From Haemophilus massiliensis (GTDB taxonomy: Bacteria; Pseudomonadota; Gammaproteobacteria; Enterobacterales; Pasteurellaceae): 57,230 nucleotides of DNA. The stretch is taken from positions 416,255 to 473,484 of the forward strand of contig LM994635.1 in the NCBI GenBank assembly GCA_000752995.2, read 5' to 3'. A program made the translations under genes and the position numbers. This document shows, piece after piece, positions 221 through 4,475 of this stretch (positions are counted from its first letter, which is position 1; every line of letters begins with the position of its first letter). The notes beneath the pieces were generated by a model. It was not told the origin of the DNA, did no database searches, and saw only the letters and a list, made by a program, of their open reading frames with translations.

Positions 221-391
221 TTAGTTATCTGCAAACTGTTTCATCAGCTTATTGATTTGTTTGCAATGTTGTTGGAAATTGCGACAGTGGGGGCAGAAGA
301 GCAAATGTGTCTTCATACCGACTTTTTCATGCAAATTTAGTGTTCGTTCCCTTGAATCAGAAATTAATTTAGTGACTTGTCGGCAATTCAT
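221..391 (-). CDS. Small zinc-binding anti-sigma factor (ZAS type)
   Basis: This 56-residue protein begins MNCRQVTKLISDSRER and holds the motif H29-x3-C33-x2-C36 with an early Cys3, which matches the HxxxCxxC zinc-binding anti-sigma (zf-HC2/ZAS) pattern. Such proteins bind their sigma factor in the cytoplasm and release it when zinc-bound thiols are oxidised. It has no membrane segment, so it should be soluble. The ATG lies one base after the TAA of the upstream sigma gene (TAATATG), so the two are probably translationally coupled. The small size makes it easy to miss in automatic annotation. The zinc motif and position are seen; the redox-sensing role is inferred from the family and from the oxidation-repair genes next door. 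Confidence 0.8.
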   Translation of the reverse strand: MNCRQVTKLISDSRERTLNLHEKVGMKTHLLFCPHCRNFQQHCKQINKLMKQFADN

Positions 392-392
392 A

Positions 393-962
393 TTATTCTC
401 CCTGACGAAATGTTCCGGATAAACAATGTTGTAGCTGTAGTCGCGCCCGATAGAGCAATGTGTGCAGATTTTCCCGAGTAATATCGACGGTATGACAAAT
501 TTCGTCTGAGGAAAATTCCAAATATTCCCGCATCATAAAAACTCGTCCTTGGCGCGCTGGCAGGTGAGTAAGGCAAGCTTCAAATAATTGCCAAAATTCT
601 TGTGAGTAAATCTCGCGCTCTTGCCAGTCTGTCGGGTAACATTCGGCCTTCCAGTGCCCGTTGTGGTCAAAGAAGTGATTATCTTCTTCTGTGGATTGAA
701 GATCGCTTTCGACGATAAACCGATCTTTCTGGCGCAGATAATCAATAATTTTATTTTTCAGAATGGCAAAAACCCAAGTTTTTAATGCCGCCTGACGTTT
801 AAATTTATCGATATTTTTGACCGCACTTAATAAGGCTTCTTGCACAATATCTTCCGCGAGCGTACCGTCTCTAAGTTGGAGATGGGCAAATTTTAGCATT
901 TGTTCTCGAATTTCTGTGAGTTGCTGCGTTGAAAAAGCGGAATTAATTTCATTTATTATCAT
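393..962 (-). CDS. rpoE2: ECF-type RNA polymerase sigma factor (RpoE2-like)
   Basis: A 189-residue group 4 sigma factor. Region 2 is visible at about residues 25-80 (LAEDIVQEALLSAVKNIDKF, then ALKTWVFAILKNKIIDYLRQ) and region 4 at about 130-180 (LPARQGRVFMMREYLEFSSD, then a recognition helix before LLYRARLQLQHCL). It should direct RNA polymerase to stress promoters once freed from the anti-sigma factor encoded just downstream. It is divergent from the methionine-rich peptide and msrAB genes, with 132 bp between. A related sigma factor in H. influenzae, RpoE2, is reported to control msrAB and hypochlorite resistance; I recall this from the literature and did not check it. An uptake core lies inside the gene near 821. 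Confidence 0.9.
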   Translation of the reverse strand: MIINEINSAFSTQQLTEIREQMLKFAHLQLRDGTLAEDIVQEALLSAVKNIDKFKRQAALKTWVFAILKNKIIDYLRQKDRFIVESDLQSTEEDNHFFDHNGHWKAECYPTDWQEREIYSQEFWQLFEACLTHLPARQGRVFMMREYLEFSSDEICHTVDITRENLHTLLYRARLQLQHCLSGTFRQGE

Positions 963-1094
963 ATAGTTATAATTTTTTATAAAAAGTTGTCATTTTTTTG
1001 TCAGAATTTTGGGATTTGTCCGACTAACTTTAATGTGAAGGGGATTCTTTCATAACATATTAATTCATAATCAACTATTAACTAGAAGGAAAAC
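963..1094. promoter_or_regulatory. Divergent control region between sigma gene and Met-rich peptide gene
   Basis: These 132 AT-rich bases must hold the promoters for both directions. A good ribosome binding site (AGAAGGA, 1084-1090) precedes the ATG at 1095. I see TTGTCAGA near 998 and TTTGTCCGA near 1015, which could belong to an ECF promoter, but I cannot assign the -35 and -10 elements with confidence. Confidence 0.45.
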
Positions 1095-1394
1095 ATGATG
1101 AAACTATTAACTAACACATTGAAAGCATTAAGCCTTACAGCTTTCTTTTCCATTGCAGCAGTCAATGCCAATGCTGAGGAGATGAAATCCCAACATATGC
1201 CGGAAGAGACAATGATGCAGTCGAAACATGCGGGAAAGGATAGCATGATGTCAATGGAAATGAAATCTGATTCTATGATGAAAGAAGACTCTATGATGAA
1301 AGAAGACTCTATGATGAAAGAGAAAATGAAAAAAGAAGATATGAAGAAAGAGCAAAAAATGAAGAAAGAAAAAATGACTAAACATAATATGTAA
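1095..1394 (+). CDS. Secreted methionine-rich peptide, putative oxidant sink
   Basis: A 99-residue protein with a clear signal peptide (residues 1-27, cleavage after VNANA). The mature part of about 72 residues contains 19 methionines plus many Lys, Glu and Ser, and no Cys. The core is a tandem SMMKED repeat (residues about 60-77) followed by a KKE/M-rich tail. The known precedent is MrpX of Azospira suillum, a periplasmic methionine-rich protein that soaks up hypochlorite and is then repaired by a methionine sulfoxide reductase. Here the next gene is a periplasmic MsrA-MsrB, which supports the same idea. Binding of copper or another soft metal by Met and His clusters is an alternative. The composition is seen; the function is inferred. 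Related low-complexity proteins may be annotated only as hypothetical. Confidence 0.85.
   Translation: MMKLLTNTLKALSLTAFFSIAAVNANAEEMKSQHMPEETMMQSKHAGKDSMMSMEMKSDSMMKEDSMMKEDSMMKEKMKKEDMKKEQKMKKEKMTKHNM
1272..1325 (+). repeat. Three tandem 18-bp units encoding SMMKED
   Basis: The unit TCTATGATGAAAGAAGAC occurs at 1272-1289 and 1290-1307, and a third unit at 1308-1325 diverges at its last bases (TCTATGATGAAAGAGAAA). Because the unit is a multiple of three, gain or loss of copies keeps the reading frame and only changes how many methionine pairs the peptide carries. Confidence 0.95.
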
Positions 1395-1405
1395 TTTAAC
1401 GTGTT

Positions 1406-1432
1406 GGCGGCGGTCAGGCTCAAAACCGCCGC
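1406..1432 (+). promoter_or_regulatory. GC-rich hairpin without U-tract between Met-rich peptide gene and msrAB
   Basis: GCGGCGGT (1407-1414) pairs perfectly with ACCGCCGC (1425-1432) around a 10-base loop, but no run of T follows. This is more like an mRNA-stabilising or partial-attenuation element than a full terminator. It would let the upstream peptide be made in excess over the reductase from a shared transcript. Confidence 0.55.
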
Positions 1433-1465
1433 TAATATGGATAAGTTGTTACAAGGAGGAACTAT

Positions 1466-2533
1466 ATGAAATACAATAAACTTTTTTTATTACTGATGTC
1501 GGCGGCAGTATTCGCTTCACCGGCAGTAGCACATGAAATGAATTCGGATAAGGCTAAAATGATGGAAAACACAAAGACATTGCAAGAAGATCTCCGAGAA
1601 ATTTATTTAGCTGGCGGCTGTTTCTGGGGAATTGAAGCTTATATGGAAAAAATATACGGCGTAAAAGATGCCACTTCCGGTTACGCCAACGGAAAAACGG
1701 CGCAGACTGCCTATCCGATTATTGGCAAAACGGATCATGCGGAAACGGTACATGTAACCTATGATGCCAATAAAGTTTCGCTGGATAAATTACTGAAATA
1801 TTATTTTCAGGTTATTGATCCGACCAGTGTCAATAAACAAGGCAATGATCGCGGCAGACAATACCGTACCGGTATTTATTATCAAAATGAAGAGGATAAA
1901 GCGATAATTTTAACCGCACTTAATGCATTGCAGGAAAAATATAAAGATAAAATTCAGATCGAAGTTGAACCGTTAAAACATTATATTTTAGCGGAAGAAT
2001 ATCATCAGGATTATTTAAAGAAAAATCCGAACGGTTATTGTCATATCGATTTGGAGCAGGCAGATAAGGTGATTATCGATCCGCAGGATTACCCGAAACC
2101 GAGTGATGCCGAGTTGAAAGCCAAACTTACCCCGTTGCAATATAGTGTTACCCAGAATAAAAATACCGAGCACTCATTTAGTAATGATTACTGGGATAAC
2201 TTTGAGCCCGGCATTTATGTGGATATTACCACCGGCGAACCGCTGTTTTCTTCCGCCGACAAATACGAGTCGGGTTGCGGTTGGCCGAGTTTTACTAAGC
2301 CGATTGTAGAAGATGTCGTGACCTATGCGGAAGATACCAGTTTCAACATGGTGAGAACCGAGGTGTTAAGCCGTAGTGGAAAAGCGCATTTGGGACATGT
2401 GTTCAACGACGGTCCGAAAGAGAAAGGCGGCCTGCGTTATTGTATCAACAGCGCCTCGATTAAATTTATTCCACTGGATCAAATGGAAGCGCAGAATTAC
2501 GGTTATTTAATCAACCTTGTTAAAGGAAAATAA
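1466..2533 (+). CDS. msrAB: Periplasmic bifunctional methionine sulfoxide reductase MsrA-MsrB
   Basis: A 355-residue fusion that reduces both stereoisomers of methionine sulfoxide in exported proteins. A signal peptide covers about residues 1-22 (FASPAVA). The MsrA domain follows with GCFWG at 51-55 (nucleophile Cys52) and Cys192 as a likely resolving residue. The MsrB domain has GCGWPSF at 270-276 (Cys271) and [11 protein letters not shown] with the nucleophile Cys326. It lacks the paired CxxC zinc motifs of many MsrB proteins and the N-terminal thioredoxin domain of Neisseria PilB. The start has a strong AGGAGGA site. The next two genes, a CcdA-like carrier and a TlpA-like thioredoxin, would supply electrons from the cytoplasm. 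An uptake core lies inside the gene near 1913. Confidence 0.95.
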
Positions 2534-2534
2534 A

Positions 2535-3185
2535 ATGTTTGAGCAGAATTTATTAATCAGCAGCGTTTTTTTAGCCGGATTGGCGTCTTTTTTATCGCCT
2601 TGCATTTTTCCGATTGTGCCGATTTATTTCGGTATTCTAAGCAAAGGCGGCAGAAAAATATTAAATACCTTATTGTTTATATTGGGCTTATCGCTGACAT
2701 TTATCGGACTGGGCTTCAGCTTTGGTTTTTTAAGCGATATTTTATTTAACGACACCGCCAGAATTGTCGCGGGTATTATTGTTATTATTCTCGGTGTGCA
2801 TCAGTTGGGTATTTTAAAAATCGGGCTGTTGGAACAAACTAAATTAGTTGAAATAAAGACTGATAATAAAAGTGCGGCGCTACAGGCTTTTGTTTTGGGG
2901 CTCACTTTCAGTCTGGGCTGGACGCCTTGTATCGGGCCGATTTTAGCCGCCGTGCTGGCATTGTCCGGCGATGAAGGCTCGGCTTTATACGGCGCGGGTA
3001 TGATGCTGGTTTATGTATTTGGGCTGGCGACACCGTTTATCCTCTTTTCATTTTTCTCCGACAGTTTATTGAAAAGAACCAAAGCGCTGAATAAACATTT
3101 AACGAAATTTAAAATTATCGGCGGAATTCTGATTATTCTGATGGGCGTTTTATTAATCACCAACAATCTGCATATTGTGATGTAA
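2535..3185 (+). CDS. CcdA/DsbD-beta-like transmembrane thiol electron carrier
   Basis: A 216-residue membrane protein with about six membrane segments. Each half carries the conserved cysteine-proline motif of the DsbD beta/CcdA family: SPCIFP at 21-26 (Cys23) and TPCIGP at 130-135 (Cys132). The family passes electrons from cytoplasmic thioredoxin across the membrane to periplasmic thiol proteins. I chose the ATG at 2535, one base after the msrAB stop and 7-8 bases after AAAGGA, over a TTG at 2517 that would overlap msrAB. The tight packing with msrAB and the thioredoxin gene shows one operon and points to MsrAB as the final acceptor. Confidence 0.9.
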   Translation: MFEQNLLISSVFLAGLASFLSPCIFPIVPIYFGILSKGGRKILNTLLFILGLSLTFIGLGFSFGFLSDILFNDTARIVAGIIVIILGVHQLGILKIGLLEQTKLVEIKTDNKSAALQAFVLGLTFSLGWTPCIGPILAAVLALSGDEGSALYGAGMMLVYVFGLATPFILFSFFSDSLLKRTKALNKHLTKFKIIGGILIILMGVLLITNNLHIVM

Positions 3186-3201
3186 TTAAGGAGAAATAAG
3201 C

Positions 3202-3678
3202 ATGAAAAAAATTATTGGATTAATGATGTTATTGTTTAGTTTTAATCTTTTTGCGGCAGGAGAAGTCAATTTGAAAGACGTTAAATTTAAAGATCTTGAG
3301 CAGAATACCGTTACGCTCGAACAATATCAGGGAAAGAAACTGTATATCAAAATGTGGGCGTCTTGGTGTCCGATTTGTCTGGCGGGATTGGCGGAAGTCA
3401 ATGAATTAAGTGGCGAACCGAATGATGATTTCGCTATTGTGACTATTGTCTCTCCTGATCATAAAGGCGAAAAATCGACCGCCGATTTTATCGAATGGTA
3501 TAAGGGATTGGATTACAAAAATATCGTAGTGCTGCTGGACGAAGAGGGCGAGGTTATTAAAAAAGCCAAAGTCCGCGGCTATCCGACCAATTTGATTTTG
3601 GACGCCTCGCTGAATGTCACAAAAACCATTCCAGGGCATCTGGGTGCTGAACAGATTAAGCGCTATTTATCCGAATAA
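3202..3678 (+). CDS. TlpA-like periplasmic thioredoxin
   Basis: A 158-residue thioredoxin-fold protein with a signal peptide (about residues 1-19, NLFAAG) and an active site WASWCPIC with Cys56 and Cys59. The cis-proline region is visible as RGYPTN. It should be held reduced by the CcdA-like protein encoded 16 bp upstream and in turn reduce the periplasmic MsrAB. Start and spacing are good: AAGGAG lies 9 bases before the ATG. It is the last gene of the module; a hairpin at 3691-3715 follows. Confidence 0.9.
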   Translation: MKKIIGLMMLLFSFNLFAAGEVNLKDVKFKDLEQNTVTLEQYQGKKLYIKMWASWCPICLAGLAEVNELSGEPNDDFAIVTIVSPDHKGEKSTADFIEWYKGLDYKNIVVLLDEEGEVIKKAKVRGYPTNLILDASLNVTKTIPGHLGAEQIKRYLSE

Positions 3679-3690
3679 TTTCTTCCGTAA

Positions 3691-3715
3691 AATCCCTGTA
3701 TTCCATGCAGGGATT
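3691..3715. terminator. Hairpin between convergent thioredoxin and DeoR genes
   Basis: AATCCCTG (3691-3698) pairs with CAGGGATT (3708-3715) around a 9-base loop. It sits between convergent genes and may end transcription from both sides, though T-runs are short. Confidence 0.6.
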
Positions 3716-3719
3716 GCCA

Positions 3720-4475
3720 TTACACCATGATATTTAACTGCGATGAAACGGAAAAATCATCCGGCAGAGATTGATTACAGATTATTGTGTCAAACTCTTC
3801 CAGCTTACCGAAATAAGCCTGCTGTACCTGATTAAATTTGGAATGATCAAAAATAAGGATCTTTTGTGCAGTTTTTGCCATTGCCTTGTGTTTAATCTGC
3901 GCTTCATCTAAACGGAAACACGTTAACCCAAGATGTTTGTCCACACCGGAAGCCGAGATAAAAGCCTTAGTCGTACAAATGAGATCCAACAAATTCGGAT
4001 TTTGCACGGGATTAATAAATAAATCGTCTTGTGAATAAGAACCGCCACACAGATAAATTTTACAGTTCGGTTTTTCTCGCAAAATCAGAAAAGTATTGAT
4101 AGAACAACAAATTGCGGTAAATCGTACGCTATTGGGAATTTGAGAGGCAATAAAAGGAATGGTCGAACCGCCGTCAAAGAAAATAGTATCGCCTTCTTGC
4201 ACCAAATTTGCCGCGATTTTACCGATATGAATCTTTTCTAATACATTTTTAGTTTGGCGTTGGGATAGCAAATGGTTCAGCTGAGGCTGCTCTTGGTTGT
4301 TCTTTAAAATATAGCCGCCGATAAGACTCATGTTACTATGTTCGGTGTTCACGTCACGGCGAATAGTCATTTCCGATACATTAAGTAATTCCGCGGCATT
4401 ACGTAAATGAATTTTATCTGTTTGGGTAAGTAGAAATTCCAATTTCTGTACCCGTAATTGCGTTTTTTTGTCCAT
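3720..4475 (-). CDS. DeoR-family sugar-phosphate-responsive repressor
   Basis: A 251-residue regulator. The N-terminal winged helix-turn-helix is clear (LRNAAELLNVSEMTIRRDV, about residues 23-41), with the TIRRD signature of DeoR proteins. The rest matches the DeoR effector domain (IFFDGGSTIPFIASQIP, and later KTAQKILIFDHSKFNQ). Such repressors usually sense a phosphorylated sugar, often the product of a kinase in the same operon. The gene starts only 6 bp after the lyxK stop, as last gene of the transporter-kinase operon. A perfect palindrome at 8641-8660 is a candidate operator. The effector is unknown; L-xylulose 5-phosphate is a guess based on the kinase. Confidence 0.9.
   Translation of the reverse strand: MDKKTQLRVQKLEFLLTQTDKIHLRNAAELLNVSEMTIRRDVNTEHSNMSLIGGYILKNNQEQPQLNHLLSQRQTKNVLEKIHIGKIAANLVQEGDTIFFDGGSTIPFIASQIPNSVRFTAICCSINTFLILREKPNCKIYLCGGSYSQDDLFINPVQNPNLLDLICTTKAFISASGVDKHLGLTCFRLDEAQIKHKAMAKTAQKILIFDHSKFNQVQQAYFGKLEEFDTIICNQSLPDDFSVSSQLNIMV

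What the first reader, a model, noticed from the sequence alone, without database searches (positions are those of the whole stretch)
221..3678. Periplasmic methionine-oxidation defence module: ECF sigma, ZAS anti-sigma, Met-rich peptide, MsrAB and its electron supply
Six adjacent genes form a closed circuit. A zinc-thiol anti-sigma factor could sense oxidants and free the sigma factor. The genes on the other side encode an exported peptide with 19 methionines in about 72 residues, a reductase for both methionine sulfoxide isomers, and a membrane carrier plus thioredoxin to re-reduce it. The parts are known separately: sigma-controlled msrAB in Haemophilus and Neisseria, and the MrpX peptide of Azospira with a different, molybdenum reductase. 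A small methionine sink recycled by MsrAB with its own CcdA/TlpA electron line seems to be little described.
Basis: partly seen in the sequence, partly recalled or inferred. Interest (0 to 1): 0.75.

Follow-up and report, generated by a model that had tools for sequence, protein, structure and literature searches.

The report
Recyclable methionine sponge beside MsrAB
Many Pasteurellaceae bacteria carry a small gene, next to a stress-type sigma-factor gene and often next to genes for methionine-repair enzymes, for a predicted exported protein that is about one-quarter methionine; the protein likely soaks up bleach-like oxidants and would be recharged by those enzymes, and a Haemophilus group that includes H. 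haemolyticus appears to have lost it.

Summary
In detail: 221-3678 encodes a zinc-motif anti-sigma, an ECF sigma, a 99-aa peptide (21 Met, predicted exported), MsrAB, CcdA and a TlpA-type thioredoxin. The sigma/msrAB/ccdA/thioredoxin set is published in H. influenzae; sigma plus Met-rich peptide plus MsrPQ in Azospira and Brucella. New here is the comparison. A Met-rich ORF lies at the RpoE2-like sigma gene in 46 of 104 sigma-bearing Pasteurellaceae genomes (14 of 33 genera); all 45 ORFs of >=17% Met lie there, none elsewhere among 3,423. In 42 of 112 sigma places it comes with a shared promoter, TGTVAG-N15-17-CGWCTAA, which also precedes msrAB in 58 of 68 msrAB regions. The neighbouring reductase is exchangeable: MsrAB in 8 genomes, MsrP in 5. 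Five Haemophilus genomes keep a relic. Peptide leaders fold a 5' structure (38 of 38, z negative), and 6 of 7 peptide-msrAB gaps examined fold a hairpin, as expected if peptide is made in excess. Met-rich/MsrAB pairs recur in three Streptococcus species and an unnamed family of another class. Oxidation and recycling of the peptide are untested.

The parts
221..391 (-). 56-aa anti-sigma factor with ZAS zinc motif (C3-X25-H29-X3-C33-X2-C36), no membrane stretch seen
   Evidence: ORF; zf-HC2 2.1e-6, NF052368 68.7 bits over cut-off 50
393..962 (-). RpoE2-like ECF sigma factor, 189 aa
   Evidence: NF009182 286.5 bits (cut-off 264), TIGR02943; relatives in 104 of 140 family genomes at E<=1e-25
999..1027 (+). 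predicted sigma promoter TGTCAG-N16-CGACTAA reading into the peptide operon; only exact match in the 2.6 Mb genome
   Evidence: found at the same place in relatives
1034..1054 (+). predicted 5'-end stem-loop of the peptide message
   Evidence: folded leader z negative in 38 of 38 distinct peptide leaders, mean -2.52; 35 msrAB-only leaders mean -0.36
1095..1394 (+). Met-rich peptide, 99 aa, 21 Met, predicted signal peptide residues 1-27
   Evidence: no Pfam family; TIGR02953 MXKDX 16.3 bits, under cut-off 41
1400..1439 (+). hairpin between the peptide and msrAB cistrons
   Evidence: z -4.06; a hairpin of other sequence at this place in 6 of 7 peptide-msrAB operons examined
1466..2533 (+). MsrAB, 355 aa, predicted exported; likely catalytic Cys C52 (MsrA) and C326 (MsrB)
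   Evidence: one search aligns C52 and C326 with Ser in chain 7e43, read here as catalytic Cys-to-Ser changes (inferred)
2535..3185 (+). CcdA/DsbD-type membrane electron carrier, 216 aa
   Evidence: DsbD_TM 6.7e-18; SPCIFP and TPCIGP stretches seen in the translation
3202..3678 (+). TlpA/Etrx-type thioredoxin, WCPIC motif, 158 aa, predicted exported
   Evidence: Redoxin 7.6e-14; nearest solved chains 4evm and 4hqs (thioredoxin family protein), then 2yp6, 4hqz and the MsrA/MsrB chain 2fy6; matches PRK14018 positions 37-167 (4.7e-34)

Best explanation
The peptide encoded at 1095-1394 is predicted to be a periplasmic sacrificial methionine sink that the co-encoded MsrAB likely regenerates with electrons that would pass from CcdA through the TlpA-like thioredoxin, the whole operon likely being switched on by the neighbouring ECF sigma factor once oxidants are predicted to disable its zinc anti-sigma. 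Shown here: gene order, motifs, the single exact promoter match reading into the peptide operon, the same promoter on msrAB genes that lie apart from sigma, exchange of MsrAB for MsrP behind the same peptide, preferential conservation of Met, and predicted hairpins on both sides of the peptide cistron. Taken from published work on relatives: the ZAS anti-sigma blocks RpoE2 and RpoE2 drives msrAB (H. influenzae), Met-rich peptides act with MsrPQ against hypochlorite (Azospira, Brucella), CcdA proteins and thioredoxin lipoproteins maintain MsrAB (S. gordonii). Inferred: the peptide's Met are oxidised in the envelope, MsrAB reduces them, and the hairpins raise peptide over enzyme so that the sink is stoichiometric and the reductase catalytic.
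For: (1) Linkage: 46 of 104 sigma-bearing genomes (14 of 33 genera) have a Met-rich ORF (>=14%) at the sigma gene; 45 of 45 ORFs of >=60 aa and >=17% Met lie there. (2) Promoter: in 42 of 112 sigma places motif and peptide occur together; of 13 with motif but no scored peptide, 6 lead to msrAB, 3 to msrP, 1 to an MNIO/hvf-type operon, 2 to a truncated peptide, 1 to nothing recognised; 4 have peptide without the motif, 53 neither. Of 114 matches in 1.457 Mb, 45 precede msrAB, 34 diverge from sigma, 13 do both. Over the 140 genomes the fixed-spacer motif has 191 sites, the reversed control 56 (summed). In Haemophilus genome G110 the two exact sites precede msrAB and an HvfX-HvfA-HvfB-type operon; both msrAB and the doxX operon were RpoE2-dependent by experiment in Hi2019 (PMC7907618). 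(3) Reductase swap at the same slot: peptide then msrAB in 8 genomes (g1, g28, g30, g34, g61; in G070 the msrAB match is in pieces), peptide then msrP in 5 (g18, g20, g61, g66) (MsrP by similarity to the L266 protein, which assigns to NF003767); on the sigma tree the two states need 4 and 3 changes, at least 2 each by well-supported branches. MsrAB and MsrP co-occur in 5 of 140 genomes, 25.5 expected. Of 46 peptide genomes 38 have MsrAB, 5 MsrP only, 3 neither. (4) In within-genus alignments Met is kept in 0.91 of comparisons, Lys 0.82, Asp 0.69, Glu 0.50. (5) Predicted hairpins. (6) Recurrence: ccdA - Met-rich lipoprotein - thioredoxin - msrAB in S. sanguinis, S. cristatus and S. ovuberis, a Met-rich ORF 2.3 kb upstream of msrAB in Marinobacter lipolyticus, and one beside MsrAB in 5 of 22 loci of an unnamed family of another class.
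Against: No expression, oxidation or reduction data. Three peptide genomes (G027, G070, G123) show neither MsrAB nor MsrP at the thresholds used (G070 has msrAB matches in pieces). 19 of 33 sigma-bearing genera show no peptide at the sigma gene, so it is dispensable. In H. influenzae the operon thioredoxin was mostly oxidised as isolated and weak in assays (PMC9404787), so the CcdA-TlpA line is not proven as donor. Several groups keep msrAB and tlpA with no ccdA match between them (L145, L146, L148, L159, L181, L183-L187, L189-L193). The published RpoE2-activated dmt promoter has no exact motif of its own in G110, and 10 of 68 msrAB regions lack the motif upstream. The exact motif alone is not rare: control hits occur in 39 of 140 genomes. 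Counts, conservation values and the Fisher test ignore relatedness; the alignments may favour Met matches; hairpin z-scores used single-base shuffles.
Confidence: 0.62

Rival explanations
1. The peptide is a periplasmic Cu(I) chelator: clustered thioethers hold copper that would otherwise make oxidants, and MsrAB keeps those Met in the metal-binding, reduced state.
For: The same promoter precedes HvfA-type copper-binding RiPP operons in relatives, and in g32, g2, g16 and g9 hvf genes lie upstream of a relative of the sigma on its own strand (7 of 108 places). Bufferins and an H. influenzae oxazolin bind Cu(I) (PMC12452194, passages). MM pairs abound in the peptide.
Against: Peptides are only 2.7% His and 1.0% Cys after residue 26; no copper gene is among the ORFs beside it; the adjacent enzymes, where there are any, are MetSO reductases.
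Confidence: 0.15
2. The peptide is a decoy or gauge: its oxidation state loads MsrAB or the thioredoxin and so tunes the response, rather than absorbing oxidant in bulk.
For: It sits beside the regulator whether or not msrAB is near.
Against: Met number differs widely, from 10 (L139) to 52 (L242) among those printed, truncated ones aside, and the sequence is repetitive, which suits bulk capacity; the predicted hairpins suggest high output.
Confidence: 0.1
3. The Met-rich ORF is a repeat-driven passenger with no function of its own.
For: 18-bp repeats, variable length, a relic in five Haemophilus genomes and truncation in four g29 genomes.
Against: Promoter, leader fold, signal and Met recur across 14 genera.
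Confidence: 0.05

Closest known systems
Azospira suillum SigF/NrsF - MrpX - YedYZ (MsrPQ)
   Same: [quoted passage not shown] the primary paper PMC4436054 is not held)
   Different: Reductase there is molybdenum MsrP fed by MsrQ; in the window it is thiol MsrAB with CcdA and TlpA, and G000 has no MsrP match at E<=1e-60. The anti-sigma here is a 56-aa zinc-motif protein.
Brucella melitensis BcrS/AbcS - BcrXQP
   Same: ECF sigma activates an adjacent operon of an MXKDX Met-rich peptide plus an MsrPQ homologue; HOCl-induced (PMC8315932, abstract and passages)
   Different: ECF16 sigma with a transmembrane anti-sigma; MsrPQ in place of MsrAB; the recognition sequences listed there share TGTAA with the motif found here but then differ
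Haemophilus influenzae RpoE2/HrsE - msrAB-ccdA-trxe
   Same: same kind of sigma and anti-sigma, same reductase, carrier and thioredoxin (PMC7907618: abstract, passages, sections 23 and 29; PMC9404787: passages)
   Different: no Met-rich peptide in the passages found (0 hits for 'methionine-rich' in PMC7907618); five Haemophilus genomes of that kind hold only a relic
Neisseria PilB (Trx-MsrA-MsrB) under SigE
   Same: the window thioredoxin matches PRK14018 and chain 2fy6; SigE controls trx-msrAB in N. meningitidis (PMC7907618 section 29)
   Different: thioredoxin is a separate protein here; that no Met-rich peptide is known there is recalled, not searched
Streptococcus ccdA1 - thioredoxin lipoprotein - msrAB surface pathway
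   Same: same three electron-line components (PMC7034828, passages); by recall the chains 4evm/4hqs nearest the window thioredoxin are pneumococcal Etrx1
   Different: two-component regulators; a Met-rich lipoprotein was found here in 3 of 6 such loci looked at; 'methionine-rich' has 0 hits in PMC7034828

Membership tests
MrpX/BcrX-type sigma - Met-rich peptide - MetSO reductase module | exported Met-rich peptide gene beside an ECF sigma pair | tested here: met
   export predicted by eye only
MrpX/BcrX-type sigma - Met-rich peptide - MetSO reductase module | peptide fits NCBIfam TIGR02953 (MXKDX) | tested here: not met
   16.3 bits against cut-off 41
MrpX/BcrX-type sigma - Met-rich peptide - MetSO reductase module | reductase partner is MsrPQ | tested here: not met
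   window has MsrAB; no MsrP match in G000; MsrP follows the peptide in 5 relatives
MrpX/BcrX-type sigma - Met-rich peptide - MetSO reductase module | peptide Met oxidised by HOCl and reduced by the partner enzyme | not testable with these tools
   needs protein chemistry
RpoE2/HrsE - msrAB regulon of Haemophilus | small anti-sigma with C/H-X23-26-H-X3-C-X2-C | tested here: met
   window residues C3, H29, C33, C36; formula
RpoE2/HrsE - msrAB regulon of Haemophilus | msrAB-ccdA-thioredoxin operon | tested here: met
RpoE2/HrsE - msrAB regulon of Haemophilus | promoter shared with known RpoE2 targets | tested here: met
   motif precedes msrAB and the doxX/hvf operon in G110; not found for the third published target, dmt
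RpoE2/HrsE - msrAB regulon of Haemophilus | sigma dependence and HOCl induction | not testable with these tools
   no expression data for this organism
HvfA/bufferin copper RiPPs | KCG repeats with MNIO maturase | tested here: not met
   peptide has no Cys; no HvfA match at E<=0.1 in NCBIfam and no hvf gene among the adjacent ORFs

The most novel reading that the evidence does not exclude
The Met-rich peptide, not the reductase, is the heart of an oxidant-absorbing module: bacteria of unrelated lineages have built it with whichever envelope MetSO reductase they own (MsrAB with CcdA/thioredoxin, or MsrPQ), overproduce it through hairpins that protect its part of the message, and the Haemophilus lineage around the species in which the RpoE2 regulon was worked out has lost it, so the regulon's most abundant product was missed.
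Probability: 0.42. Interest if true: 0.75.

Novelty: new variant of a known kind. Interest (0 to 1): 0.62.

Why it matters
It would show that a renewable methionine buffer is a general way to shield a cell envelope from phagocyte-type oxidants, that two chemically unrelated reductases can recharge it, and that the electron cost differs (a thiol line from the cytoplasm against quinol through MsrQ). It also offers a natural comparison: related Haemophilus genomes with and without the peptide share the rest of the locus. The promoter motif, present in 97 of 140 family genomes, gives a starting prediction of the RpoE2 regulon, to be filtered by position because control hits are not rare.

Tried and rejected
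Sigma autoregulation: rejected for the window; the one exact motif reads towards the peptide. In genus g31 peptide, sigma and anti-sigma lie in one direction, with the motif upstream in 7 of 8 peptide places, so autoregulation is possible there.

Motif rarity as evidence by itself: rejected. In G000 the reversed control has 4 hits or 2 against 1; with one mismatch 6 against 21. Over the family 191 sites against 56. Position and conservation carry the weight.

'CcdA always present': rejected (loci listed under evidence against).

That G110 (1,890,645 bp) is H. influenzae NCTC 8143 is recalled, not verified; its HI1450 homologue is identical to PDB 1nnv, but so are those of L162, L165 (H. haemolyticus) and L167.

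Streptococcus-wide survey: not possible. No protein-database search (search for homologous proteins) and no structure prediction was run: the peptide is low-complexity.

Rows dropped: the slot tally leaves out 4 of 112 sigma places (L169 and L170, two sigma genes each); the tree has 110 rows because 2 repeated sequences were skipped; one search examined 7 of the 8 peptide-msrAB genomes (not G070/L233, whose msrAB match is in pieces). The 46 peptides include the truncated ORFs of L248 and L252.
Full report
What is there. Leftwards run a 189-aa ECF sigma and a 56-aa anti-sigma with the ZAS spacing C-X25-H-X3-C-X2-C; rightwards run a 99-aa peptide (21 Met; predicted signal, then 72 residues with 19 Met), MsrAB, CcdA and a TlpA-like thioredoxin. 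The peptide hits no Pfam family, and the MXKDX model TIGR02953 only at 16.3 bits, under its cut-off of 41. The thioredoxin matches the PilB-type model PRK14018 at positions 37-167 and, among solved chains, 4evm/4hqs first, then 2yp6/4hqz and 2fy6; by recall 4evm/4hqs are pneumococcal Etrx1 and 2fy6 the PilB N-terminal domain.

What is already in print. In H. influenzae RpoE2 drives msrAB, the 67-aa HrsE blocks it, and a doxX operon is RpoE2-dependent (PMC7907618; abstract, passages and sections 23 and 29). The H. influenzae msrAB operon encodes CcdA and a thioredoxin for a periplasmic relay (PMC9404787, passages). In Brucella an ECF sigma activates bcrXQP, an MXKDX Met-rich peptide with an MsrPQ homologue (PMC8315932, abstract and passages); Azospira SigF/MrpX/YedYZ is summarised in PMC4623255, which also notes msrA and msrB homologues predicted to be exported in two perchlorate islands (passages). 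Met in exported proteins recycled by MsrAB as an antioxidant was proposed for B. cereus (PMC5526929, title and passages). I found no paper that pairs a dedicated Met-rich peptide with MsrAB, CcdA and thioredoxin: searches in the open-licence PMC library. Ten papers hold both 'methionine-rich' and 'MsrAB'; of these I saw passages of PMC9404787, PMC5526929 and PMC10151825 and only the listing of the other seven. 'MXKDX' occurs in five papers, of which by listing only the Brucella one concerns such a regulon. Subscription papers are not covered.

The peptide belongs to the sigma gene. A relative of the sigma at E<=1e-25 occurs in 104 of 140 Pasteurellaceae genomes, 112 places; MsrAB at E<=1e-120 in 65 of 140, 68 places. 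I fetched the 68 msrAB regions and the 78 sigma places not inside them (1.457 Mb). A Met-rich ORF (>=14% Met after residue 20) sits at the sigma gene in 46 genomes of 14 genera; two of these (L248, L252) are short, truncated ORFs. At the stricter >=60 aa and >=17% Met, 45 ORFs qualify, all within 800 bp of a sigma start, none elsewhere among 3,423 ORFs. The place beside sigma holds, in 108 of 112 places scored: msrP divergent 27, nothing recognised 23, peptide divergent alone 23, peptide + msrAB 8, peptide co-directional 8, hvf co-directional 7, msrAB directly 6, peptide + msrP 5, hvf divergent 1.

One promoter ties it together. Intergenic DNA shows TGTVAG-N15-17-CGWCTAA reading away from sigma, usually with a spacer of 16. 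In the window it lies at 999-1027 and is the only exact match in the genome; reversed-pattern controls have 2 to 4 hits there, so place and conservation matter, not rarity. Of 114 matches in the fetched DNA (fourth base of the first box free, spacer 14-18), 45 precede msrAB, 34 diverge from sigma, 13 do both, 13 lie within 600 bp of a sigma start in another way (the g31 type among them) and 9 elsewhere. So 58 of 68 msrAB regions have it within 700 bp upstream; the ten without are L140, L177, L179-L181 and L195-L199. In the 45 where it is not shared with sigma it lies 36-58 bp before the msrAB match. Over 140 genomes the spacer-16 form has 191 sites in 97 genomes, the reversed control 56 in 39. 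In Haemophilus genome G110 the two exact sites are msrAB and an HvfX-HvfA-HvfB-type operon, both kinds shown RpoE2-dependent in Hi2019 by others; a third published target, dmt, has none. Of the 14 sites chosen for a look (including that G110 one), 4 precede hvf operons (L344, L345, L351, L352), 1 msrPQ (L353), 1 a DsbD-type protein (L350), 1 thioredoxin-CcdA (L356), 2 DUF417 genes (L354, L357), 2 an acyltransferase-like gene (L346, L347), 1 an unidentified exported ORF (L348), and 2 lie inside antisense ORFs (L349, L355) and may be chance. DUF417, DsbD and thioredoxin/CcdA are by Pfam on 80-residue pieces; hvf and msrPQ by likeness to proteins scanned; the rest by eye.

The reductase is exchangeable. 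Eight genomes have sigma <> peptide - msrAB and five have sigma <> peptide - msrP (G019, G021, G094, G095, G144), with an MsrQ-like ORF next (MsrQ by eye). Over the family MsrAB (65) and MsrP (55, E<=1e-60) co-occur in 5 of 140 genomes where 25.5 are expected (Fisher 1.4e-13, relatedness ignored). Of 46 peptide genomes 38 have MsrAB, 5 MsrP only, 3 neither. On a sigma tree of 110 rows the peptide+MsrAB state needs 4 changes and the peptide+MsrP state 3, at least 2 each by well-supported branches, so the pairings arose or broke more than once. Since MsrPQ is the partner of such peptides in Azospira and Brucella, the swap is the strongest sign that the peptide's job concerns MetSO.

Selection and output. 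The 46 peptides are 25% Met, 23% Lys, 11% Asp, 2.7% His, 1% Cys after residue 26; in within-genus alignments Met is kept in 0.91 of comparisons, Lys 0.82, Asp 0.69, Glu 0.50 (not corrected for relatedness). The first 45 nt of all 38 distinct peptide leaders (14 genera) fold more stably than single-base shuffles (z negative in all, mean -2.52); in 36 the best fold is a compact hairpin within about 8 nt of the -10 box, in L143 and L258 a longer fold. Thirty-five msrAB-only leaders average -0.36. In 6 of 7 peptide-msrAB operons examined a second hairpin, different in sequence, lies before msrAB (z -2.1 to -6.1; L144 has none). Such bracketing is expected, from general knowledge of mRNA stability, to give more peptide than enzyme; this is inference.

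Loss in one lineage. This would explain why RpoE2 work in H. influenzae did not meet the peptide, if that species is among these genomes, which I could not prove.

Beyond the family. In the three streptococci the order is ccdA - Met-rich lipoprotein - thioredoxin - msrAB; three other streptococcal loci with that cassette lack it. In an unnamed family of another class 5 of 22 MsrAB loci (flanks of at most 1.5 kb) have a Met-rich ORF of 57-97 aa on the opposite strand, one of them without an evident signal (L382). A class-wide sample gave 12 of 369 genomes with MsrAB, G000 and G147 among them, and no such ORF in the loci of the others that were read.

Verdict. The feature is real, the sink reading is the best one (0.62, unchanged by the recount), and the system is a variant of a known kind rather than a new kind. 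The chemistry is untested.

Noticed in passing
L246, L248, L252, L255 (unnamed genus g29): The peptide ORF is truncated and an hvf (copper RiPP) operon plus a transposase-like ORF lies right beside it.
   Followed up: partly
L236, L257 and other g17 loci: An HvfX-HvfA-HvfB operon lies beyond the anti-sigma gene, convergent with sigma, with two tandem copies of the promoter motif in L236 and L257; no Met-rich ORF at sigma.
   Followed up: partly
L169, L170 (Haemophilus G108, G113): Two sigma/anti-sigma copies about 4 kb apart; one has the peptide and promoter, the other neither.
   Followed up: no
L144 8540-8953: A 137-aa peptide with 41 Met, lipoprotein-like signal and MKMHDN repeats before msrAB.
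   Followed up: no
L137, L139, L174, L235, L239, L247: In several genera the peptide has two Cys soon after the signal, spaced CX6-7C; role unknown.
   Followed up: no
L357, 106-315 after the motif: A second small ORF with a signal-like start and about 10% Met precedes a DUF417 gene behind the motif in G074.
   Followed up: no
L266, L262, L272, L289 and others: A second clade of the sigma (47-58% identical to the window's) is divergent from msrP; 27 of 108 places scored have msrP there, 26 of them in that clade.
   Followed up: partly
L346, L347 (G029, G092): The motif lies about 42 bp before an ORF pair that looks, by eye, like an RTX activator acyltransferase and RTX toxin gene; not scanned.
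   Followed up: no
G000:C9:744425-744904: A second MsrB-like ORF (180 aa, 69% identical to the MsrB half) elsewhere in the genome; export not checked.
   Followed up: no
window 3679-3725: Inverted repeat between the converging tlpA and DeoR-type genes, without a clear T run.
   Followed up: no
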